Assembly: GCA_016208495.1 (NCBI GenBank)
Contig: JACQXX010000118.1
Span: 1 to 64,000 of the forward strand
Length of the DNA: 64,000 nucleotides
Source: Acidobacteriota bacterium
GTDB lineage: Bacteria; Acidobacteriota; Blastocatellia; Chloracidobacteriales; Chloracidobacteriaceae
Direction of reading: 5' to 3'
The position numbers and the translations under genes were made by a program. Each line of letters opens with the position of its first letter. Positions within the stretch are counted from its first letter, which is position 1. Shown piece after piece: positions 6,216 through 64,000 of the stretch. The notes under the pieces were generated by a model. That model was not told the DNA's origin. It ran no database searches and was given only the letters and a program-made list of their open reading frames with translations.

Positions 6216-6851
6216 TCAGTGTTCAAAGTCATAACAGTACACATCGTCGGGCAGCGTCCCAGGTTTAACCAGGGTAAGTTCCTGCAAGTACCCGGTGTGC
6301 AGGTCATACACCCAGCCGTGGAGGTATGGCCGCTGGTCGGTCTTCCAGGCCATTTGAATGATCGAAGTTCTGACCAGATTTCGCACCTGCTCTTCGACAT
6401 TGAGTTCAACCAGTCGCCGCCAGCGCTGGTCTTTGGTGGGAAGGGCGTTGAGTTCGTCCCGGTACAGGTGATACACATCCTTGATGTTATGCAGCCAGGT
6501 GTTGATCAAGCCCAGGTTTTGATGCGACATCGCGCTTTTGACGCCTCCGCAGCCATAATGCCCGCAAATGATGACGTGTTTGACTTTGAGCACATCCACG
6601 GCATATTGCAGCACGCTGAGCAAATTCAAGTCCGAATGAACCACCAGATTGGCCACGTTACGATGAACAAACAGGTCTCCGGGGCCGGTTCCAGTGATAT
6701 CTTCCGCCGGGACACGGCTGTCTGAGCATCCAATCCACAAATACTCAGGTTTTTGTTCGTCTTTGAGCCGCAGGAAATAATCGGGCCGCAGATCCAGTTT
6801 TTCCTTCACCCAGGCTTTATTCGCCAGCAGGAGTTTCTTGTATTCTTCCAT
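6216..6851 (-). CDS. can: Beta-class carbonic anhydrase
   Basis: The 211-residue protein carries both hallmarks of beta-carbonic anhydrases: IGCSDSR near residues 38-44 (zinc Cys, and the Asp-Arg dyad) and GHYGCGG near 96-102 (zinc His and Cys), plus HRNVANLV. It interconverts CO2 and bicarbonate in the cytoplasm. The start at 6851 is chosen because GGAGG lies 6 bases upstream; this overlaps the end of the SulP gene by 35 bp, so the pair is translationally linked. SulP plus carbonic anhydrase is a known pairing for bicarbonate uptake and pH or inorganic-carbon balance. Its length is typical. Confidence 0.92.
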
Positions 6852-8684: not shown

Positions 8685-9029
8685 CTATTCCGCATAAACG
8701 GGACACCCCGGAAGATCCTCCGGAAGTCGTTGGACCACACATTCCCAGCCGTCCATCTCTTCATCAATTTCAAAGGCATATCCGTGATTGGTCCCAACCT
8801 CAATGCAGATCAGATCAACCGCCCACAGGTCACGTTTGAATGCCAGAAGATAGGTAATGTCTTGCCATTCAATCACGGTTTCTTGCTCGATTTTGCCATT
8901 GACCGCGCGAGTCTTCCAAAGCTGATGTGGAGTGCAAATGATTGAAAACGTAGGAGATGGCTGCGGGTCTCGAAATCGCGCCAGGATGTGTGAAAGCCAG
9001 GTTGGTTTGGGTTCTGGCGGGTTGTTCAT
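8685..9029 (-). CDS. Small unrecognised acidic protein
   Basis: A 114-residue soluble protein with a good AGGAGGG ribosome-binding site 7-8 bases before its ATG. It contains a strand-rich core (EWQDITYLLAFKRDLW, DLICIEVG) and ends in a Trp-rich piece (DGWECVVQRLP). It lies 18 bp downstream of another small acidic protein on the same strand, so the two are probably co-transcribed. The size and composition recall immunity-type proteins, but I see no family signature. Confidence 0.55.
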   Translation of the reverse strand: MNNPPEPKPTWLSHILARFRDPQPSPTFSIICTPHQLWKTRAVNGKIEQETVIEWQDITYLLAFKRDLWAVDLICIEVGTNHGYAFEIDEEMDGWECVVQRLPEDLPGCPVYAE

Positions 9030-9047: not shown

Positions 9048-9491
9048 TCAGGGGAAATCAAGGTCAGGGCCGATGATTCGAAACAGTTGAGCACTGCGCT
9101 TTGGATGAAGTTGATCAAAGTCAGCCCACCACGAACCGGGTTTGACGAGGAACAAATGGGTGTCAGAGTTGAAGCTCAGTTCAAACAACCGGAGTTCGTA
9201 CTCGTCTTGAAGAATATCATTGATTGCCCGCAGGCAAATATAACGGTCTTTCAGGCTGAAGCTCAACCCAAGCAGCCGTTCCTTTTCTTTATACTGGATC
9301 TGGATGTCGTCGTTGCCCATCCATTCAAAGGAAATTTTGTATGGAGCAATAACCTGGTTGATCGACCTGATGATTTCCTCTTCTTCTTCGCGCCAATCCA
9401 CCATCACGGCTTCAGGAGATTCTTCAATCAATTCCCAGAGAATTTCTTCATCATCCGAGAAAAATCGTTCGTCAAAATGGGTGTTCGTCAT
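9048..9491 (-). CDS. Small unrecognised acidic protein
   Basis: About 147 residues with a very acidic N-terminus (DERFFSDDEEILWELIEE) followed by alternating strands and helices, ending in GPDLDFP. I use the ATG at 9491; an in-frame ATG at 9551 would lengthen it by 20 residues, and neither start has a clear Shine-Dalgarno sequence. Probably co-transcribed with the gene ending at 8685. Function unknown; acidic composition would fit an inhibitor or immunity protein, which is only inference. Confidence 0.5.
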   Translation of the reverse strand: MTNTHFDERFFSDDEEILWELIEESPEAVMVDWREEEEEIIRSINQVIAPYKISFEWMGNDDIQIQYKEKERLLGLSFSLKDRYICLRAINDILQDEYELRLFELSFNSDTHLFLVKPGSWWADFDQLHPKRSAQLFRIIGPDLDFP

Positions 9492-9543
9492 ATTTGAGAG
9501 GTAATGAGTGGATATCAAGGTTTTGCGACTGTTGGGTGTTTTT

Positions 9544-10108
9544 TCATTCATCCCCAAATCGAAACCAATCTGATTCGACTATATTTGGGTATGACGGCAG
9601 GTTTCCTATTTCCCAAGATTTTCCATACACAAAAATTACCAATTTGTACTTCCATTTCGTTGAAATCGTTGAAGCTGGCTCCGGCAACTTTTGAGAATCC
9701 TTTGAAGCGTCAGTTCCGTTCCTTCGAACATTAATCCCGGCGGTGCGTCGGTAAAAACAAGGTTGGCCGTTTTGTGGCACAGACCCGGAGACTGCTACCT
9801 GGAGTTCCCCTCCTGGTTTTATTTCAACTGGTGGATCGTTGAAGGCGGCTGTCCAACACGTACCGGTAACCGGCCAACAATCCTCAGTTTTTGATAACCG
9901 GTTGAATGTCTTGAATCCGGGCGTATCGGTCCTGAAGGGGTTTAAACCCGATTTTCGGTACAATCTTGTTTTTGATAACCGGTTGAAGATCTTGAATCTG
10001 GGTGTATTGCTCCTGAAGGGGTTTAACCCCGATTTCATGCGGTGCCATCGGTTGGGGAGATTGGCCAAAGGGCAAAATCAAACAAATTAGCATGAGAAGG
10101 GTAACCAT
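9544..10108 (-). pseudogene. Probable frameshifted small secreted protein with internal duplication
   Basis: Reading begins at 10108 with a hydrophobic signal-like N-terminus (MVTLLMLICLILPFG) and runs through two copies of a roughly 28-residue unit (IGVKPLQEQYTQIQDLQPV and IGFKPLQDRYARIQDIQPV) to a stop at 9884. Another frame open from 10068 to 9544 continues for about 110 codons beyond that stop with protein-like sequence (PPVEIKPGGELQVAVSG). A single frameshift near 9890-9950 would join export signal, repeats and C-terminal domain. It may be a decayed gene, a sequencing error, or two overlapping ORFs. Confidence 0.35.
9890..10040. repeat. Direct duplication of a roughly 80-bp segment
   Basis: Two similar segments (about 9892-9960 and 9970-10040) share TTTTTGATAACCGGTTGAA followed by TCTTGAATC, and CTGAAGGGGTTTAA. 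They encode the two repeat units of the small secreted protein. The copies keep more nucleotide identity than coding need would require, which suggests a recent duplication. Confidence 0.7.
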
Positions 10109-10314: not shown

Positions 10315-10681
10315 CTTAGTACAAGTCCCCATAAAAGGGGTATGAAATTCGATCACTCGCTGGGGAAAAATTGGTTTTCGCCCGGATGGGCGCTGGAAAG
10401 TAGCCGGTGGCAAGTGTCGCTTTGGACATGCGGCCACCGGAAAGAATCGCCCGTGAGGTGCGCGCCCGGATGGGCGCTGGAGGTGTGGTTCGGTCACTTT
10501 TCCTTTGGAGTTTCAGTCACTCGCTCACGATTCTGGTTCCAGCGCCCATCCGGGCGCGAACGATTGGCGGCCTGGATTCCGGTGGGTGTGCCTCAAAGCC
10601 GGCTGCCCACCGGCTACTGTCCACCGCCCATCCGGGCGAAAACCGAAATTCCATCCCTTATTTATGAGCACTTGTACTTAG
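10315..10681. mobile_element. 367-bp MITE-like element with terminal inverted repeats and nested REP palindromes
   Basis: The ends CTTAGTACAAGT (10315-10326) and ACTTGTACTTAG (10670-10681) are inverted repeats with one mismatch, and the complementarity continues imperfectly for about 30 bp. Inside, two forward copies of CGCCCGGATGGGCGCTGG (10380-10396, 10463-10480) face two inverted copies (10538-10555, 10624-10637), and AGTAGCCGGTGGC (10400-10412) faces its inverse near 10604-10618. No convincing ORF and no target-site duplication are visible. It looks like a non-autonomous element or a composite REP cluster. Confidence 0.6.
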
Positions 10682-10836: not shown

Positions 10837-11469
10837 TCAAGCCGCTTGCAATGTAAATCCAGGGGCAGCAACTCCTGGCCACAATTCATATTGGACTTCT
10901 GGTTCTTGAGTGCCACCATGTCTTGGACTTGAAGGAAGTCCAATTGCTCGCGCCGCCGCAATACTCAGCTCGCCGATCTTACGAGATGGCCCTTTGTCGG
11001 CAACCACGCATTCAACAGACTGACCTCTCCAGGTAACTCGTGCTTTACAACCTCGGACTATGCCCGATGTCCCCTGAACGATCAGGCGTGGCACAACAAT
11101 GTAGGGCACGGTTTCGGAGTCTACATACGCCGCAGGATCGCTTGGTAATTTTCCAGGGTGGCGATACCAGGTCATTGAGGCAATGATCCCGCCGGAAAAA
11201 ATTTTTGGTTCATTATCCACATCCAAAATCACAATACTCCGTGCCCAGGGTTCGGCACAAATAACTTTTCCATGAACAATTTTCATGCCGCCGTTTGCAA
11301 GCAATTCGGTTCCGGAATTATCTTCCTTGTAGGCAGCCGGGGCGCCATTTTGCCCATTTGCGCCATCGGCGTCTATGTCGGCATCCGCAAGAAAAAAAAC
11401 TCTTCCATCGTCATCTTCGGTGATGGTGCAGGAATACCCTTCATTCGTAATCGTGCCTATCGTGCGCAT
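10837..11469 (-). CDS. GH75 chitosanase-like protein, no signal peptide
   Basis: The 210-residue protein shows the pattern I associate with fungal-type chitosanases of glycoside hydrolase family 75: an acidic DADIDADG followed by NGAPAAYKEDNSGTELLANGG, a middle block ending in YIVVPRL, then CVVADKGPSRKIGELSIAAA and a C-terminal YELWPG. The DADxDADG segment would carry the catalytic or metal-binding acidic residues. There is no signal peptide although the usual substrate is extracellular. A strong AGGAGGAG precedes the ATG. It is the last gene of a same-strand group of four. Assignment from motif memory only. Confidence 0.55.
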   Translation of the reverse strand: MRTIGTITNEGYSCTITEDDDGRVFFLADADIDADGANGQNGAPAAYKEDNSGTELLANGGMKIVHGKVICAEPWARSIVILDVDNEPKIFSGGIIASMTWYRHPGKLPSDPAAYVDSETVPYIVVPRLIVQGTSGIVRGCKARVTWRGQSVECVVADKGPSRKIGELSIAAARAIGLPSSPRHGGTQEPEVQYELWPGVAAPGFTLQAA

Positions 11470-11533
11470 ACGTTCTCCTCCTGATTATTTCAGCCGGTTT
11501 ATCTTCATTTGCAATCCTGACAACAATCAATGG

Positions 11534-12487
11534 TTAAGCCAGTTTATAGCCAAGTTGAATGCCAGAATTTGTCATGACCAGGAATTCGTGAATATCGTAG
11601 GGGTGTGTGCCTCCATTGAAGATGTGCTTGAGCAAATCAAAAAAATGTGCCAGCGCCTTACCATTTTCATCAAGGTCCGCATCCAGAATGGTTTGGCGAC
11701 CTCCCTGGTGATCTTCCACCCTGGAAAGTGTTAACTGCAGGTTCGCATGGGCTTCAAAGGATTTGAGGCTTATCATTTCCAGAATTCGGAGGTCTCCAGG
11801 AATGTTCTTCCGGTGCAGGCTGGGATCGGCAGGTTGGTATATATTTCCAAACAATTTGATGGATCGGTTGACCTCGGCCCACATGTCATCTCGTACAACA
11901 GCCACGAATCGCTCTCTTCCAAGGGTCAGAATTTGTTGGACAAATGAAAACCATGCCGGCTGGTCAAGCGTCGGCTCAATTGGCTCCCTCATTTTATAAT
12001 AAAGATTCAGAAGAGCTGTTTTCGCCAGCCGGGCATCGGTATCATTGAGCCCATCAAAGGTGTCACCCGTAACCAATCCAAGGTTTGAGGAACTTCCCTT
12101 TTGAACCAATTGAACCGAAGGCGAGTTTTTTAGGACTTCCTTCAGCAGGTCAAATTCTGGAGGAAGTTCCATCCATTTCACAAATTTGGCCTTCCAGGTT
12201 TCAGGATCCCTCACGACCCGATATTCTTTTTCAACCGGCGATGTACCAGGAAGCATCAGGATACTCGTTTGGAAATCGCGGTATCGTGACGGCGCGATAT
12301 CCAGGCGAATATTCCCGACTTGTGGAAAAGCAGGCAACTCAAATAGTTGAGCTGACGGAAACGAAATCACGTGGGAATTTCCAATTTGGCGATTGTCTGG
12401 CTGGAAAAACTTCACTCCAACCTGATCGTGAATCGGCTTTCTTTCAACGCCCATCAGTTTGATTTTCAAAAACCCTGTATTTCCCAT
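11534..12487 (-). CDS. Unrecognised protein in hydrolase cluster
   Basis: 317 residues with a good AAAGGAGG site before the start. The first 110 residues look like a beta-sandwich (LKIKLMGVERKPI, VKFFQPDN, IRLDIAPSRY), the rest is mainly helical, and the C-terminus carries DADLDENG then HIFNGGTHPYDIHEFL. The DADxDENG string resembles the acidic motif of the adjacent GH75-like protein, so calcium binding is conceivable. No signal peptide, no membrane segment. I do not recognise the family; by position it may work with the PhoD-like and subtilisin-like neighbours. Confidence 0.5.
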   Translation of the reverse strand: MGNTGFLKIKLMGVERKPIHDQVGVKFFQPDNRQIGNSHVISFPSAQLFELPAFPQVGNIRLDIAPSRYRDFQTSILMLPGTSPVEKEYRVVRDPETWKAKFVKWMELPPEFDLLKEVLKNSPSVQLVQKGSSSNLGLVTGDTFDGLNDTDARLAKTALLNLYYKMREPIEPTLDQPAWFSFVQQILTLGRERFVAVVRDDMWAEVNRSIKLFGNIYQPADPSLHRKNIPGDLRILEMISLKSFEAHANLQLTLSRVEDHQGGRQTILDADLDENGKALAHFFDLLKHIFNGGTHPYDIHEFLVMTNSGIQLGYKLA

Positions 12488-12547
12488 CCCTGGCCTCCTT
12501 TGGATTCTGGTTTTGCATGATGGAAACCGCTGCTTTTCTAAACAGCT

Positions 12548-13912
12548 TTAAAACTTTGAATAACTTGGGCGTGAGGGGAACGAATAACGGATGATTTCTT
12601 TGACATCGGAGAGTGCAGAAGAGCTTTTTTTAGCCCTCTTTCCAACCCAGGTCACGGTGGGCACCCCCAGAACGGCTCCATTTTGATCTCTTGGGTATTT
12701 GACCTCAAACAAGCCATACTGACGACGCTCCCCGATACCACCCCCAGCGGTTCCGTCTTCGTGTCCAATGCTGTAATCGCCTCCTTTTTCCGAAGCCGGG
12801 CTCTCCAGCGCCGCCGCCTGAAAAACGGGGAACCCGCCCTGGTTTCCTTGTGAATCAGGTGTGGTATAGGTGTGGTGCGACCCATCGTCAATTGCCAGCA
12901 TGTGAGCATCTCCACTGATCATGCAGACATTATTGATCTGGTTTTGCTTCACAAAATCAGCCAGTTCTTTGCGCTCAACGGCATACCCAGCCCAGAAATC
13001 CAGCCCATTTTCAGGGTCTCCGATCCAGGGCACAGAGTTGGCCCAAATAATCAGATCTTTAGATTTTCCTTCAAGCAACTTATTTTTTAACCAAAGTTTT
13101 TGGTTCCTTCCCAAGATGGTTTTTCCAGTTCCGCCTGAGGAATTGCGCGATGTTTTATTGAACCGGGTATCGGTCAACAAAAACATGACATTTCCAATCT
13201 GGAATGACTGAAACAAACCATCACTTGGGCTGGCAAATTCGTGATGAGGGACATAGATCGAGTAGGCTTCGAGCGCGGTTTTTCGAGCAGAACGTGATTC
13301 GTCACTGGCGTCTCCTTCAGCGTTGTTTCCAAGAAAGTCGTGATCATCCCATCCATAAACAACCGGAAGTTTTTGAAACAGCGCTTTGATTTCCTTGCGT
13401 GAGAGGACGCTGTCATATTTCTTGAAACGGCCCGGAATATCCCGCTCGTGGATGTCATAATATAAATCACCGAGATGCGCAAAAAATAACAAACCAGGTT
13501 CTTGTGTGATGGCGGCATACGCTTCAGGTGCAGGGGAATGGAAGAACCAATCGCTCTTTGAACAACTTGAGAAAGCAAACCGAAAATCTGTTTGCGTCCC
13601 AGGTTCAGGAAAAGTTTGAAAGGCTCCCCCAGTGCCTTCCTGAGCTGCCCTTCCATCAAAGCGGAAGTTGTAAAAATATTGGGTGTTTGGGCGCAAATTA
13701 CTCAACCGGAAGGTCAAAATCCGGTACTGGTAATCTGGGTTCACCCAAATCGAAAAAGGGTTCACCGATTGAAAAGTATGAAAGTCCGAGGCTTCTGAAA
13801 TGATGATTTCAGCACGTTGGACATTTCGCATCACACTCAGTTTGATGGTTGCCCCAGTCTCTGTAACCGCACCGCACCAGGGCCCAGCATTGATTCTTGA
13901 TGCTTCACTCAT
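12548..13912 (-). CDS. PhoD-like metallophosphoesterase
   Basis: 454 residues. An N-terminal fibronectin-like domain (to about 110, with LSNLRPNTQYFYNF) precedes a metallophosphatase domain with HLGDLYYDIH (near 146-155), YGWDDHDFLGNNA (near 185-197), LTDTRFN and SGDAHMLAIDDG (near 333). These are the metal ligands of PhoD-type phosphatase/phosphodiesterases. Classical PhoD is exported by the Tat pathway, but this protein begins directly with MSEASRINAGPW and lacks any signal, as do its neighbours. AAGGAGGA precedes the start. Substrate unknown; related proteins act on phosphomono- or diesters such as teichoic acid or phospholipids. Confidence 0.8.
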   Translation of the reverse strand: MSEASRINAGPWCGAVTETGATIKLSVMRNVQRAEIIISEASDFHTFQSVNPFSIWVNPDYQYRILTFRLSNLRPNTQYFYNFRFDGRAAQEGTGGAFQTFPEPGTQTDFRFAFSSCSKSDWFFHSPAPEAYAAITQEPGLLFFAHLGDLYYDIHERDIPGRFKKYDSVLSRKEIKALFQKLPVVYGWDDHDFLGNNAEGDASDESRSARKTALEAYSIYVPHHEFASPSDGLFQSFQIGNVMFLLTDTRFNKTSRNSSGGTGKTILGRNQKLWLKNKLLEGKSKDLIIWANSVPWIGDPENGLDFWAGYAVERKELADFVKQNQINNVCMISGDAHMLAIDDGSHHTYTTPDSQGNQGGFPVFQAAALESPASEKGGDYSIGHEDGTAGGGIGERRQYGLFEVKYPRDQNGAVLGVPTVTWVGKRAKKSSSALSDVKEIIRYSFPSRPSYSKF

Positions 13913-13962
13913 AGTTCCTCCTTGAGAAGAATTTTCCGTTGCAGAAATGAATGACCCCTGCC

Positions 13963-16668
13963 TTACAGGAGCGTTGCGAGAGCTGATGAGACTCCCTTCT
14001 GGCGAAGCTTTTGGCGAGTTGCTTCCAGCGGTTGGGCGTGGATGGGTTCGACTTCAAAAACCGCCGAACGAATTGAATGGGATTGAGCCAGTTGATTTCG
14101 AAACTCCCGGAAGAGAGGCGGCGTGGTTGCAAGATGAAAAGCCAGTTCCTGTCCAACCTGGTTCAGGTGACGACTCAAATCTGAAGGTGGGACGCCAAGT
14201 AATTCAGCCAGAGAGGAGTGCAAGACCTCTGGTGGACTATCCTCAAAAAGGTGGCGAAACGTCGCTTCACCGCCGGTATCAACTGGCATCATTGAATTGA
14301 AGTGGAGGGCTGCATTGGGAAGATCCACCGGCAACGCTGCCGCCAGGACCTGGTCAGCCTGGATAATTCCGGCACCATATTGGTTTTGATCCCATTCAGG
14401 TGGGTGAACGCAGCTTTTCCGGAGTATCTGGTTAAAAACGAACGAAAGCTTTTCCTGGCCATACCGGGCAATCAGGTTGTCCCGACCATGAAATGAAAGC
14501 CACAGCGCTGCAATTCCAGCCACATGAGTGACGGCAAATGAGGTGCCGGATCCACGTCCGGTGGAAAATCCAGTGAGATCCCCTGATTGATGTTGAACGG
14601 TGGCTCTCCAAACAGATTCGCCTGGGGCTGAGACATCCACCTTGTCACCATGGGAGGATCCACGCCATGGCCTGTTTTCAACATTGGTTGCGGCCACTCC
14701 GATCACTTCATCATAGGCTGCGGGCCAGGCAACAAACCCGACGTAATTGCCCGCAGCCGCACAGAGAATGACGCCATGCCGTTGGGCATAGCGGACTGCC
14801 TGGTGGATACGCCAGTTGCCAAGTCCTCCCATGCTGATGGAAATGACATGGGCTCCCTGGTTCACGGCATATTCAATGGCTTTGGCCAGCTTGAATATAT
14901 CAGTCAACAAGACCACCGTATTTGAAACCCGGAGTGGAATGATCTTACTTCCAGGCGCGACCCCAATGACATCAACTTCATTTGGCAGAACCGATTGGCG
15001 AGGGCTGACAATGACGCTTGCGGTTCCAGTCCCGTGGCCTGGATGAAATCCGTCGAGCTGGTCGCGGGCATCCTGGATGTTCTCTTTGAAGTTAAACCCC
15101 TGGTCTGGAATCAAGTTGGCAAGAATTTGGGGATGATCAGTAAATCCAGTATCTGGGTGACCAATCACAACTCCCTGACCGGGGGTTTTTCCTTCGGGAA
15201 ACATTGCCCATGCCTTCGGCGCCTGGATTGCGTTCACGCTCCAATCAGATTGTTCACTTCCAGGTTTGTGTTCTTCGCCTCCAAAGGCTGAGAGCATGCG
15301 GGCTTCAGGTTCGGGCTCGGTTAAATCCGGTTCATTCAGCGTTGGAAGTTCAGGAATAATGAATTGGGGTTCGACATACACAAAACCAGGCTGGGAGCGA
15401 AGATGGTAGGTCCGTTCCCAGGCGGCTTCCGGGGAAAGAAATACTGTTGGGTGAGTCACATCAAATTGTTTTTCTGAATCGCCGAACCGTTCGGCTTGCC
15501 AGCCGAATTCAAATTCTTGATTAAATAGCTCAGCGACATCACCAGGCCCCTTCGATGTGGCCATTTCCACCGAAAAACCAGTGAATCGAACAAAACAGGG
15601 GGAGTCTGGCAGATCAAACAGATCAACAATGAGGCTGTCATTTCCGACTTTTCGCAATCGGGAGGGAGAATCATAAGTCACCAGGACTGAGGTGCAATTG
15701 CTGGAAGTCGAAAAGATGGTAAGTCCTTCAGCCCGGTCGGTTCCAGCCAGGATTCCTTCGCCATGAGGGATTTCAAACAGTTTCCCTGGGGTCGTCAGAC
15801 TCTCATGGTCAACCAGTAAGGCATTTTTCCACCGAAACACGGCGATAGTGCCATCCATTTCCATGGTTGGACCAGCAAGGATGAGCAAATCATCATTCTG
15901 AAAACACAGGTCACGAACGCCCATCCCTCGCAGGTCAACAAAATGTTTGCGATACGTTTGGCCTTCCGGTGCAATTTCTTTCAATATCAATTGTGACGGA
16001 ATCTCAGGATCTGACTCAACCTGGATTTCAAGGATGACGGCCCACCCACGTAGGACCGGGCCACGCAACCCAATAAACACCCGCGAGCCTGAAACGGCCA
16101 ACCCTTCGATGTCAAACCCATTGTCTTTACTGGGGATCTTGAGGAATAAGCCCAAATGTTTATCCTGATTTAAAGTATCGAGAAAAACATTGCCGTCTTT
16201 GCGGGCCTTGATTTGTGCGGCTCTCAGTTGTGGATGCGACTCCGGATGTTCTTTTTTCAATTCGCCATTGATAAGTGGAATTCTGGCCAGGATGTAACGA
16301 TTTCCATCTTTCTCATTACCTTTGGCAAGATTCGCAATGTTTTGGGCTTCATCAAATTTATCAAGTTTTACTTTTTCACGTTTCAGGCTATGAGAGCCGA
16401 TCAACCAGAGATAGCCTCCATTGTAATCCATTCCTTCCAAATCAATCTCACTGTTTTCAGTGTCTGGTAGTTCAATATAGTCTCTGAGCGGTTTGGTCAC
16501 ATACCCGTCAAAAACTGAATTCTCTGAGATTGTGAGTCGTTCAACGCTGGTTTTTTCATCTGAGGCTACCCAAAGGAATTGATCAGCCTTGACGACGGCT
16601 GACAGGTTTTTCAGGAGTTTTTTATCCTTGGCGAGTTTGAGCGTGATGGATTGGCGGCGGTTTGACAT
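13963..16668 (-). CDS. DUF3616-subtilisin (S8) fusion protease
   Basis: 901 residues in two parts. Residues 1 to about 340 match a DUF3616-type beta-propeller-like region (DIEGLAVSGSRVFIGLRGP). After a propeptide-like stretch (SQPGFVYVEPQF) comes a subtilase domain with Asp in HPDTGF (near 504), His in GHGTGTAS (near 544) and Ser in GTSFAVTHVAG (near 710; GTSFA rather than the usual GTSMA). The triad is intact, so it should be an active serine protease. A C-terminal segment of about 130 residues follows. There is no signal peptide. It heads the four-gene minus-strand group. Fusion of DUF3616 to a protease is the unusual point. Confidence 0.8.
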   Translation of the reverse strand: MSNRRQSITLKLAKDKKLLKNLSAVVKADQFLWVASDEKTSVERLTISENSVFDGYVTKPLRDYIELPDTENSEIDLEGMDYNGGYLWLIGSHSLKREKVKLDKFDEAQNIANLAKGNEKDGNRYILARIPLINGELKKEHPESHPQLRAAQIKARKDGNVFLDTLNQDKHLGLFLKIPSKDNGFDIEGLAVSGSRVFIGLRGPVLRGWAVILEIQVESDPEIPSQLILKEIAPEGQTYRKHFVDLRGMGVRDLCFQNDDLLILAGPTMEMDGTIAVFRWKNALLVDHESLTTPGKLFEIPHGEGILAGTDRAEGLTIFSTSSNCTSVLVTYDSPSRLRKVGNDSLIVDLFDLPDSPCFVRFTGFSVEMATSKGPGDVAELFNQEFEFGWQAERFGDSEKQFDVTHPTVFLSPEAAWERTYHLRSQPGFVYVEPQFIIPELPTLNEPDLTEPEPEARMLSAFGGEEHKPGSEQSDWSVNAIQAPKAWAMFPEGKTPGQGVVIGHPDTGFTDHPQILANLIPDQGFNFKENIQDARDQLDGFHPGHGTGTASVIVSPRQSVLPNEVDVIGVAPGSKIIPLRVSNTVVLLTDIFKLAKAIEYAVNQGAHVISISMGGLGNWRIHQAVRYAQRHGVILCAAAGNYVGFVAWPAAYDEVIGVAATNVENRPWRGSSHGDKVDVSAPGESVWRATVQHQSGDLTGFSTGRGSGTSFAVTHVAGIAALWLSFHGRDNLIARYGQEKLSFVFNQILRKSCVHPPEWDQNQYGAGIIQADQVLAAALPVDLPNAALHFNSMMPVDTGGEATFRHLFEDSPPEVLHSSLAELLGVPPSDLSRHLNQVGQELAFHLATTPPLFREFRNQLAQSHSIRSAVFEVEPIHAQPLEATRQKLRQKGVSSALATLL

Positions 16669-16944: not shown

Positions 16945-17586
16945 TCAAAATCTGATTTTGTCAGTTACTTCAGTGAGCCAGGTGAGATACCAGTCCATGA
17001 ATTTCATGCGGGGTTTACCATCTTTCTGTAATGGATATAACCCTTTATGATCTGTCCGATCATCGCACCAAATATTCCCCCGCTCAGGACCAGTAATGAT
17101 GAGCCATTGGCGATATGCACAGCCAAGGTGGCAGATGGGAATTGCTCCATTGATATGGTTTGGGTTGAAATAATTTGCTTCGAATGCGGTCACTTGTCTT
17201 TCGAGTTCATCGTCATCTTCGAGGTCATAGTCAGGTTCTTCCTGAAGATCATTCCAGGCTTCCGTATGTGGGAAGGGAAGAGCCAAAATACCCACGAAGC
17301 CGTCATTTTCCTTCCATTTCGCATATCTCCATCCATTATCCATTTCGCCAAGTTTGAACAACCCATAAGCTGGGCCGGCTCCTCCGTTTCCAACGTGCAA
17401 GAGGAAATCGCGGTATTCTTCAGGTAACGAAACTTGGTGGTGCTGCTCAAACTCCTGAATTTCTTGTTCGGTCAGAACTGGGTGGAGTTTGAATTGATGT
17501 TCCTCGGCACCAAAAACCTGGGGGCTCGGTCTCCGTGTAGCAAGAGTGGAAATAGTTTTTTTGATTTGTATGTGGTGAATATTCAT
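16945..17586 (-). CDS. SMI1/KNR4 (SUKH) family protein
   Basis: 213 residues using the ATG at 17586. The SUKH-type signature is clear: LTEQEIQEFEQHHQVSLPEEY then FLLHVGNGGAGPAYGLFKL, an acidic EEPDYDLEDDDELE region, and a C-terminal GNIWCDDRTDHKGLYPL followed by FMDWYLTWL. SUKH proteins are often immunity proteins against contact-dependent or polymorphic toxins, but a toxin gene is not seen here. The frame stays open upstream to 17823 through a dispersed repeat, giving 79 extra residues I regard as spurious. No obvious ribosome-binding site is visible. Confidence 0.75.
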   Translation of the reverse strand: MNIHHIQIKKTISTLATRRPSPQVFGAEEHQFKLHPVLTEQEIQEFEQHHQVSLPEEYRDFLLHVGNGGAGPAYGLFKLGEMDNGWRYAKWKENDGFVGILALPFPHTEAWNDLQEEPDYDLEDDDELERQVTAFEANYFNPNHINGAIPICHLGCAYRQWLIITGPERGNIWCDDRTDHKGLYPLQKDGKPRMKFMDWYLTWLTEVTDKIRF

Positions 17587-17693
17587 ATTTGGGCGCACCA
17601 CCGAATTTCGGTCCGATTCGTTTCGCATCCAGATGGGGGCTGGACGATGAGTTTGGTTTGGTATCCACCGGTTCACCGATGCGTTTGAAACGT

Positions 17694-17770
17694 TGGTCCA
17701 GCGCCCATCCGGGTGCGAACGTGCCTGTCCCTGGATTCCGATGGGTGCGCCAAAGCAGGCTTCCACACCG
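17694..17770. repeat. Copy of REP-type unit CCAGCGCCCATCCGGG
   Basis: GGTCCAGCGCCCATCCGGGTG and the following CCTGGATTCCGATGGGTGCG...CACACCGG are homologous to 10534-10613, the right half of the 367-bp element. The unit contains the short palindrome CGCCC-n4-GGGCG with one change. Confidence 0.7.
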
Positions 17771-17943
17771 GATTTTGTGTTAGGCCAAGTCGGTGTTAAA
17801 AATAAAGGGCTTGTCAGTACCACCCGTGTGATAAGTACCTTACCGAAAATTTCCAGACATTTTAACCACGAAACACACGAACGACACGAAAAGAATCAAA
17901 CACTTACCAAACCCAATATCTCAGGAAACTTATGACAAGGTAC

Positions 17944-47875: not shown

Positions 47876-64000
<16,125 letters not shown>

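What the first reader, a model, noticed from the sequence alone, without database searches (positions are those of the whole stretch)
10837..16668. Cluster of hydrolases without signal peptides (chitosanase-like, phosphatase, protease)
Three families that usually act outside the cytoplasm (GH75, PhoD, subtilisin) are encoded side by side with one unrecognised protein, and all begin without an export signal. Good ribosome-binding sites fix the starts, so missed signals are unlikely. They may be cargo of a one-step secretion or contractile injection system, or act in lysis or intracellular turnover. The unrecognised 11534 gene shares a DADxDxxG motif with the GH75-like protein.
Basis: partly seen in the sequence, partly recalled or inferred. 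Interest (0 to 1): 0.6.

Follow-up and report, generated by a model that had tools for sequence, protein, structure and literature searches.

The report
Leaderless lytic-enzyme operon with unnamed partner
A soil-type bacterium carries a tight operon of protein-, phosphate- and chitosan-degrading enzymes that lack the usual export tags, together with an unnamed protein that in other Acidobacteriota keeps turning up beside a changing set of similar enzymes, which points to an undescribed enzyme-payload system.

Summary
Four same-strand genes (gaps 51-65 nt, good RBSs, closed upstream frames) encode DUF3616+subtilase, a PhoD-like phosphatase, an unrecognised 317-aa protein and a GH75 chitosanase-like protein; none has a Sec/Tat-type N-terminus. 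The shared DADxDxxG is the GH75 acidic motif, unrelated to the DxDxD of the 317-aa protein.

The 317-aa protein is the finding. Its family is absent from Pfam, NCBIfam and PHROGs: a transthyretin/CnaB-like domain plus a C-terminal domain with no confident PDB match, holding 17 near-invariant polar residues. It is patchy (24/396 Acidobacteriota) but sits next to changing, mostly leaderless degradative enzymes: GMC oxidoreductases (9 loci, 0.2 expected), PhoD (3, 0.03 expected), subtilases, DUF3616, GH19, GH108, amidase-caspase, papain, metallopeptidase, SGNH. PhoD, DUF3616 and S8 recur with it; GH75 does not, and its closest relatives found are in soil phages.

Delivery is unproven. The genome has T6SS genes and an eCIS locus, neither linked to the operon; the eCIS cargo motif is absent. 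Family presence correlates with phage-type sheath genes (10/24, 2.7 expected) but not with TssC. Best reading: a non-Sec-released antagonistic or lytic enzyme payload, about 45%.

The parts
13963..16668 (-). DUF3616 (res. ~21-349) + subtilase S8 (res. ~497-727, motifs HPDTG, GHGTGTAS, GTSFAV), 901 aa, leaderless; stretch before the protease (~res. 415-440) looks like an I9-type propeptide end
12548..13912 (-). PhoD-like phosphatase/phosphodiesterase, 454 aa, leaderless; homologues adjoin the U317 gene in two other Acidobacteriota genomes
11534..12487 (-). U317: member of an unnamed family; N-terminal transthyretin/CnaB-like domain (1-99) and a C-terminal domain (100-317) with near-invariant N161, R193, H225, S240, K242, N249, Q251, T253, D269, D271, D273, H281, T294, H295, H300
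10837..11469 (-). GH75 chitosanase-like (V-Csn type), 210 aa, leaderless; nearest relatives found are in soil phage contigs
10701..10732 (.). perfect 12-bp inverted repeat downstream of the last gene, terminator-like (reported on the + strand; tail on the - strand less T-rich)
16945..17823 (-). SUKH-1 (SMI1/KNR4) domain protein upstream of the operon; membership of the unit uncertain

Best explanation
The operon is one instance of a patchily distributed 'U317 island' of Acidobacteriota: a constant leaderless protein (U317) encoded beside a changing set of leaderless degradative enzymes that attack proteins, phosphoesters, lipids/sterols and cell-wall glycans. Shown: operon structure, lack of leaders, recurrence with different enzymes, intact S8 and GH75 catalytic motifs. 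Inferred: the enzymes act outside the producing cytoplasm as an antagonistic or lytic payload, leaving by a non-Sec route (lysis-type release or a contractile particle), and U317 takes part as an enzyme of the set or a ligand-binding subunit through its invariant polar cluster. GH75 was added to this copy, probably from a phage.
For: Adjacency far above chance: GMC oxidoreductase within two genes of U317 in 9 of ~62 loci (expected 0.18, P 5e-13; 0.5 expected at the highest genome rate), PhoD adjacent in 3 (expected 0.03, P 4e-6) (loci treated as independent). PhoD, DUF3616 and U317 recur together in L114; a 49%-identical S8 with the same tail plus GMC and U317 in L056. Other operonic partners: amidase_2 - alpha/beta-hydrolase-like - caspase fusion, papain-hydrolase fusion, HExxH metallopeptidase, GH19 (2), GH108, patatin, SGNH. 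Of 30 partners, all but one SGNH protein with a leader and one membrane protein lack a leader-like N-terminus; 0 of 40 U317 rows has one. U317 genes occur in two viral contigs with terminase-type neighbours. Sheath-gene co-occurrence.
Against: No secretion or injection gene was recognised beside any U317 gene examined; many U317 genes stand alone between housekeeping genes. Cargo motifs for the eCIS, RTX and PAAR routes are absent. The sheath correlation may reflect genome size or shared ancestry and includes prophage sheaths. Caspase and STAND/TIR-type neighbours (L029, L023) equally fit a cytoplasmic suicide role. No protein here has been assayed, and leaders were judged by a heuristic.
Confidence: 0.45

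Rival explanations
1. Cytoplasmic conflict/suicide module: the leaderless hydrolases are held inactive and digest the cell's own polymers on phage attack or damage, U317 acting as sensor or regulator.
For: U317 is fused to the C-terminus of a STAND-type NTPase with a TM segment in L023, near a TIR-like ORF; partner L029 is an amidase-caspase fusion, and PADLOC lists caspase and subtilase hits; a possible propeptide in the S8 protein.
Against: GH75, GH19, GH108 and amidase have no substrate in the cytosol; most loci have no STAND, TIR or caspase gene recognised; the phage copies of U317 do not fit host suicide easily.
Confidence: 0.22
2. Loose collection: U317 is a mobile gene of unrelated function that hitch-hikes in variable islands with other mobile degradative genes, without a shared mechanism.
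For: Patchy distribution, many solitary copies, GH75 private to this genome in the sample, dispersed repeats on both sides of the operon.
Against: The partners are not random mobile genes but repeatedly the same enzyme classes, same strand and short gaps, far above background.
Confidence: 0.2
3. eCIS cargo: the enzymes are loaded into the eCIS particle encoded on C64.
For: Sheath-type genes enriched in U317-positive genomes; the genome has an eCIS-like locus with sheath, tube-like and baseplate-like ORFs.
Against: Different contig, not within ten genes of the core; the N-terminal motif of that locus's ORFs is absent from all four proteins; no DUF4157.
Confidence: 0.1

Closest known systems
GH75 chitosanase V-Csn of a soil virus (PDB 7TVL; PMC9485262)
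   Same: Homologous over most of the window protein; conserved D/E pair (D148/E157) and the IDADGA motif; leaderless relatives in phage contigs
   Different: Here in a bacterial operon with protease, phosphatase and U317; an insertion after the DADIDADG motif; substrate untested
PhoD alkaline phosphatase (PDB 2YEQ)
   Same: Homologous catalytic domain
   Different: No leader; belongs to a leaderless subgroup found next to U317
Subtilase S8 family (mycosin-like by NCBIfam score, below cut-off)
   Same: Intact Asp/His/Ser motifs and a possible propeptide
   Different: Fused behind DUF3616, leaderless, own C-terminal tail
eCIS-associated toxins (PMC11297309)
   Same: Leaderless proteins including peptidases and hydrolases; phylum-level co-occurrence with sheath genes
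   Different: Not within ten genes of the eCIS core, no DUF4157, no N-terminal motif of the local eCIS ORFs
T6SS effector sets with adaptors (DUF4123, Eag/DUF1795; from general knowledge)
   Same: Constant partner next to varied lytic enzymes; very weak fold resemblance of the U317 C-domain to SciW/EagT6 (Foldseek E 0.02, Z about 3)
   Different: No VgrG/Hcp/PAAR neighbours recognised, no TssC co-occurrence; the fold match is not significant

Membership tests
GH75 chitosanase | sequence homology to a characterised GH75 enzyme | tested here: met
   phmmer to V-Csn E 2.6e-13, query residues 38-200
GH75 chitosanase | conserved acidic pair D148/E157 and N-terminal Asp motif | tested here: met
   ADKGP (from 157), IGELS (from 165), DADIDADG (from 29); the D34/D36 match is read from the motif, outside the printed alignment
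GH75 chitosanase | hydrolysis of chitosan | not testable with these tools
   needs an assay
PhoD phosphatase | PF09423 domain over cut-off | tested here: met
   95 bits, cut-off 27
PhoD phosphatase | export signal (Tat) of classical PhoD | tested here: not met
   closed upstream frame, no twin-Arg motif
Subtilase S8 | catalytic Asp, His, Ser motifs | tested here: met
   HPDTG, GHGTGTAS, GTSFAV
eCIS cargo | N-terminal motif shared by local eCIS ORFs, or DUF4157 | tested here: not met
   motif on three C64 ORFs, absent from the four proteins; no DUF4157 hit
eCIS cargo | encoded within ten genes of the eCIS core | tested here: not met
   eCIS on C64, operon on C118; draft assembly, and published toxins meet this in 88%, not all
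T6SS effector | fusion to or adjacency with VgrG, Hcp or PAAR | tested here: not met
   no such Pfam hit in the operon proteins or in the other window genes scanned; nearest Hcp-like ORF about 63 kb away
Type I (RTX) secretion substrate | C-terminal GGxGxD repeats | tested here: not met
   none in any of the four
Phage lysis enzyme (for GH75) | position beside holin/spanin in phages | tested here: inconclusive
   holin- or spanin-like ORFs upstream in L066 and L069 judged by eye, not in all relatives
Known fold for the U317 C-domain | significant PDB match | tested here: inconclusive
   no Foldseek hit at E<=0.001; best Z 4.0

The most novel reading that the evidence does not exclude
U317 defines a new enzyme or ligand-binding fold that is the constant core of a previously undescribed, leader-independent enzyme-payload system of Acidobacteriota and their phages, with interchangeable lytic and oxidative enzymes as cargo.
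Probability: 0.3. Interest if true: 0.8.

Novelty: new variant of a known kind. Interest (0 to 1): 0.55.

Why it matters
Acidobacteriota are among the commonest soil bacteria, yet their weapons and lysis systems are poorly known. A single marker gene (U317) that finds islands of leaderless proteases, phosphatases, chitosanase, peptidoglycan hydrolases and oxidases gives a handle on how these bacteria release or inject enzymes without the Sec pathway. The C-terminal domain, with 17 near-invariant polar residues and no significant structural relative found, is a good target for a new enzyme activity. The phage origin suggested for the GH75 gene shows such sets can be restocked from viruses.

Tried and rejected
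(1) Missed leaders: rejected by closed upstream frames. (2) DADxDxxG as a shared family motif: rejected, it is the GH75 acidic motif. (3) T4-lysozyme-like helix hit of the U317 profile (E 0.03 over ~40 residues, repeated over many lysozyme entries): treated as chance. (4) SleC match of U317: covers only the N-terminal sandwich (Z 10.5, residues 1-98). (5) SciW/EagT6 and class A beta-lactamase resemblance of the C-domain: Z 2-3, not usable. (6) Viral relatives of the PhoD and S8 proteins: none found by the pattern scan. (7) GH75 and phage-type U317 in the annotated phage collection: no match. (8) A conserved four-gene unit: rejected because GH75 is private in the sample. (9) Literature on DUF3616 or such islands: nothing relevant found.

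Full report
Setting. The window lies on contig C118 of an 8.4-Mb draft genome (177 contigs, 99% complete).

Observation. Four minus-strand ORFs follow each other at 51, 61 and 65 nt. RBSs of the AGGAGG type stand before GH75, U317 and PhoD, and a weaker CGGAG before S8. The frames upstream of the start codons are closed after 5, 20, 47 and 14 codons and contain no ATG, GTG or TTG. The N-termini are hydrophilic (maximum Kyte-Doolittle 0.8-1.2, versus 2.5-2.9 for apparent leaders of the same genome). No twin-Arg, double-Gly or RTX motif was found.

The known parts. The 901-aa protein is DUF3616 followed by a subtilase with intact Asp, His and Ser motifs; a stretch ending in PGFVYVEPQF resembles the end of an I9 propeptide (inference from sequence). 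The 454-aa protein has a PhoD domain related to the solved alkaline phosphatase D 2YEQ (E 4e-16). The 210-aa protein does not match Pfam GH75 but matches the soil-viral chitosanase V-Csn (7TVL, E 2.6e-13), with the D148/E157 pair conserved. V-Csn's D34 and D36 are proposed to have substrate-binding and catalytic roles in PMC9485262; the window's DADIDADG is that motif.

The unknown part. The 317-aa protein (U317) has no Pfam, NCBIfam or PHROGs hit. Forty family rows were aligned (A2). The AlphaFold model is confident (pLDDT 91, pTM 0.89). Residues 1-99 form a transthyretin/CnaB-like sandwich (VIA Z about 9-10 to several such domains). Residues 101-317 modelled alone (pLDDT 91.5) give no Foldseek match at E<=0.001 and a best Z of 4.0; this does not prove a new fold. 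Of 27 columns conserved in at least 36 of 40 sequences, 26 are in the C-domain and 17 of those are polar. From the DSSP strands 234-243, 249-258 and 264-273, simple hairpin register puts N249 opposite D273, Q251 opposite D271 and T253 opposite D269, so the polar residues would line one face (inference; coordinates could not be inspected). That pattern suits an active site or metal site better than a mere scaffold.

Distribution. U317 is found in 24 of 396 Acidobacteriota genomes, in 37 genome-contig loci and in two viral contigs, L061 and L062; L061 has terminase- and portal-like neighbours (read by eye). Two fetched records carry other labels (Acidimicrobiia, Bifidobacterium MAGs), possibly misbinned.

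Neighbours. For 57 loci the operonic neighbours were listed and representative ones scanned. They include GMC oxidoreductases (L020, L022, L037, L038, L050, L051, L052, L056, L058), PhoD (L016, L114), DUF3616 (L017, L114), S8 (L016, L051, L056), GH19 (L027, L108), GH108 (L035), amidase_2-hydrolase-caspase (L029), an HExxH metallopeptidase (L029, L051; by eye), papain-hydrolase (L057), metallophosphoesterase (L022, L038; L030 convergent; L054 by eye), patatin (L016), class-3 lipase and haem peroxidase (L021, two to three genes away) and SGNH (L015, L116). Background rates from 55 genomes are 3.2 GMC and 1.05 PhoD genes per genome. Expected adjacency is 0.18 and 0.03 against 9 and 3 observed. 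The test treats loci as independent; the L022/L050/L051/L056 GMC genes are close relatives of each other, but five others are not. In G021 the only PhoD gene detected in the genome is the one next to U317. Many U317 genes have no enzyme beside them, which weakens a strict unit.

Co-conservation of the four. PhoD of the window has a close homologue (E 1e-138) next to U317 in L114, with DUF3616 two genes further on the other strand; the S8 domain and tail of the window protein have a 49%-identical homologue in L056 beside GMC and U317. GH75 has no comparable homologue in the 396 sampled Acidobacteriota genomes (best other E 4e-5, about 70 residues), but has 48-60% identical relatives in five viral contigs and a 35% one in a sixth. 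Acquisition from a phage is the simplest reading.

Machines. TssC lies at C118:78.7 kb with TssB- and Hcp-like ORFs; TssK is near the end of C57. A sheath-type gene on C64 sits in an eCIS-like locus; three following ORFs share an N-terminal QLQLxxxLNQSPxxxAQxK motif which none of the four proteins has. Across 396 genomes, U317 co-occurs with PF04984 sheath in 10 of 24 (2.7 expected, p 8e-5; 7 of 17 for strong hits, p 0.001) and with TssC in 6 of 24 (3.9 expected, p 0.17). Genome size and ancestry were not controlled.

Conclusion. The three enzymes are known kinds; the interest lies in U317 and its repeated association with leaderless enzymes. A payload released without Sec is the best-supported reading at about 0.45; cytoplasmic suicide (0.22), hitch-hiking (0.2) and strict eCIS cargo (0.1) remain open.

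Noticed in passing
window 10373-10644 and 17697-17744: A dispersed repeat with core CGCCCATCCGGGCGC lies on both sides of the operon in inverted orientation; a similar peptide signature appears in L073 about 6252-6629, so it may be a genome-wide repeat.
   Followed up: partly
window 16945-17823, 9048-9557, 8685-9029: SUKH-1 protein and small genes (one weakly DUF6630-like) flank the operon; SUKH proteins are immunity proteins elsewhere.
   Followed up: partly
L077 14203-19900: eCIS-locus ORFs on C64 share an N-terminal QLQLxxxLNQSPxxxAQxK motif, possibly a loading signal.
   Followed up: partly
L023 1-2901: U317 domain fused behind a STAND-type NTPase with a TM segment; SLATT-like and TIR-like ORFs downstream, judged by eye.
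   Followed up: partly
L029 4855-7788: Single leaderless protein with amidase_2 at the start, a hydrolase-like middle and a caspase domain at the end.
   Followed up: no
L066 and L069, about 9.2-10.6 kb: Phage GH75 genes stand after holin- or spanin-like ORFs, so some 'auxiliary' viral chitosanases may belong to lysis cassettes.
   Followed up: no
window 47876-63949 and L073 1-2487: Very large ORF (5357 aa in the window, continuing past it) that looks NRPS-like by eye, between the operon and the TssB/TssC/Hcp genes.
   Followed up: no
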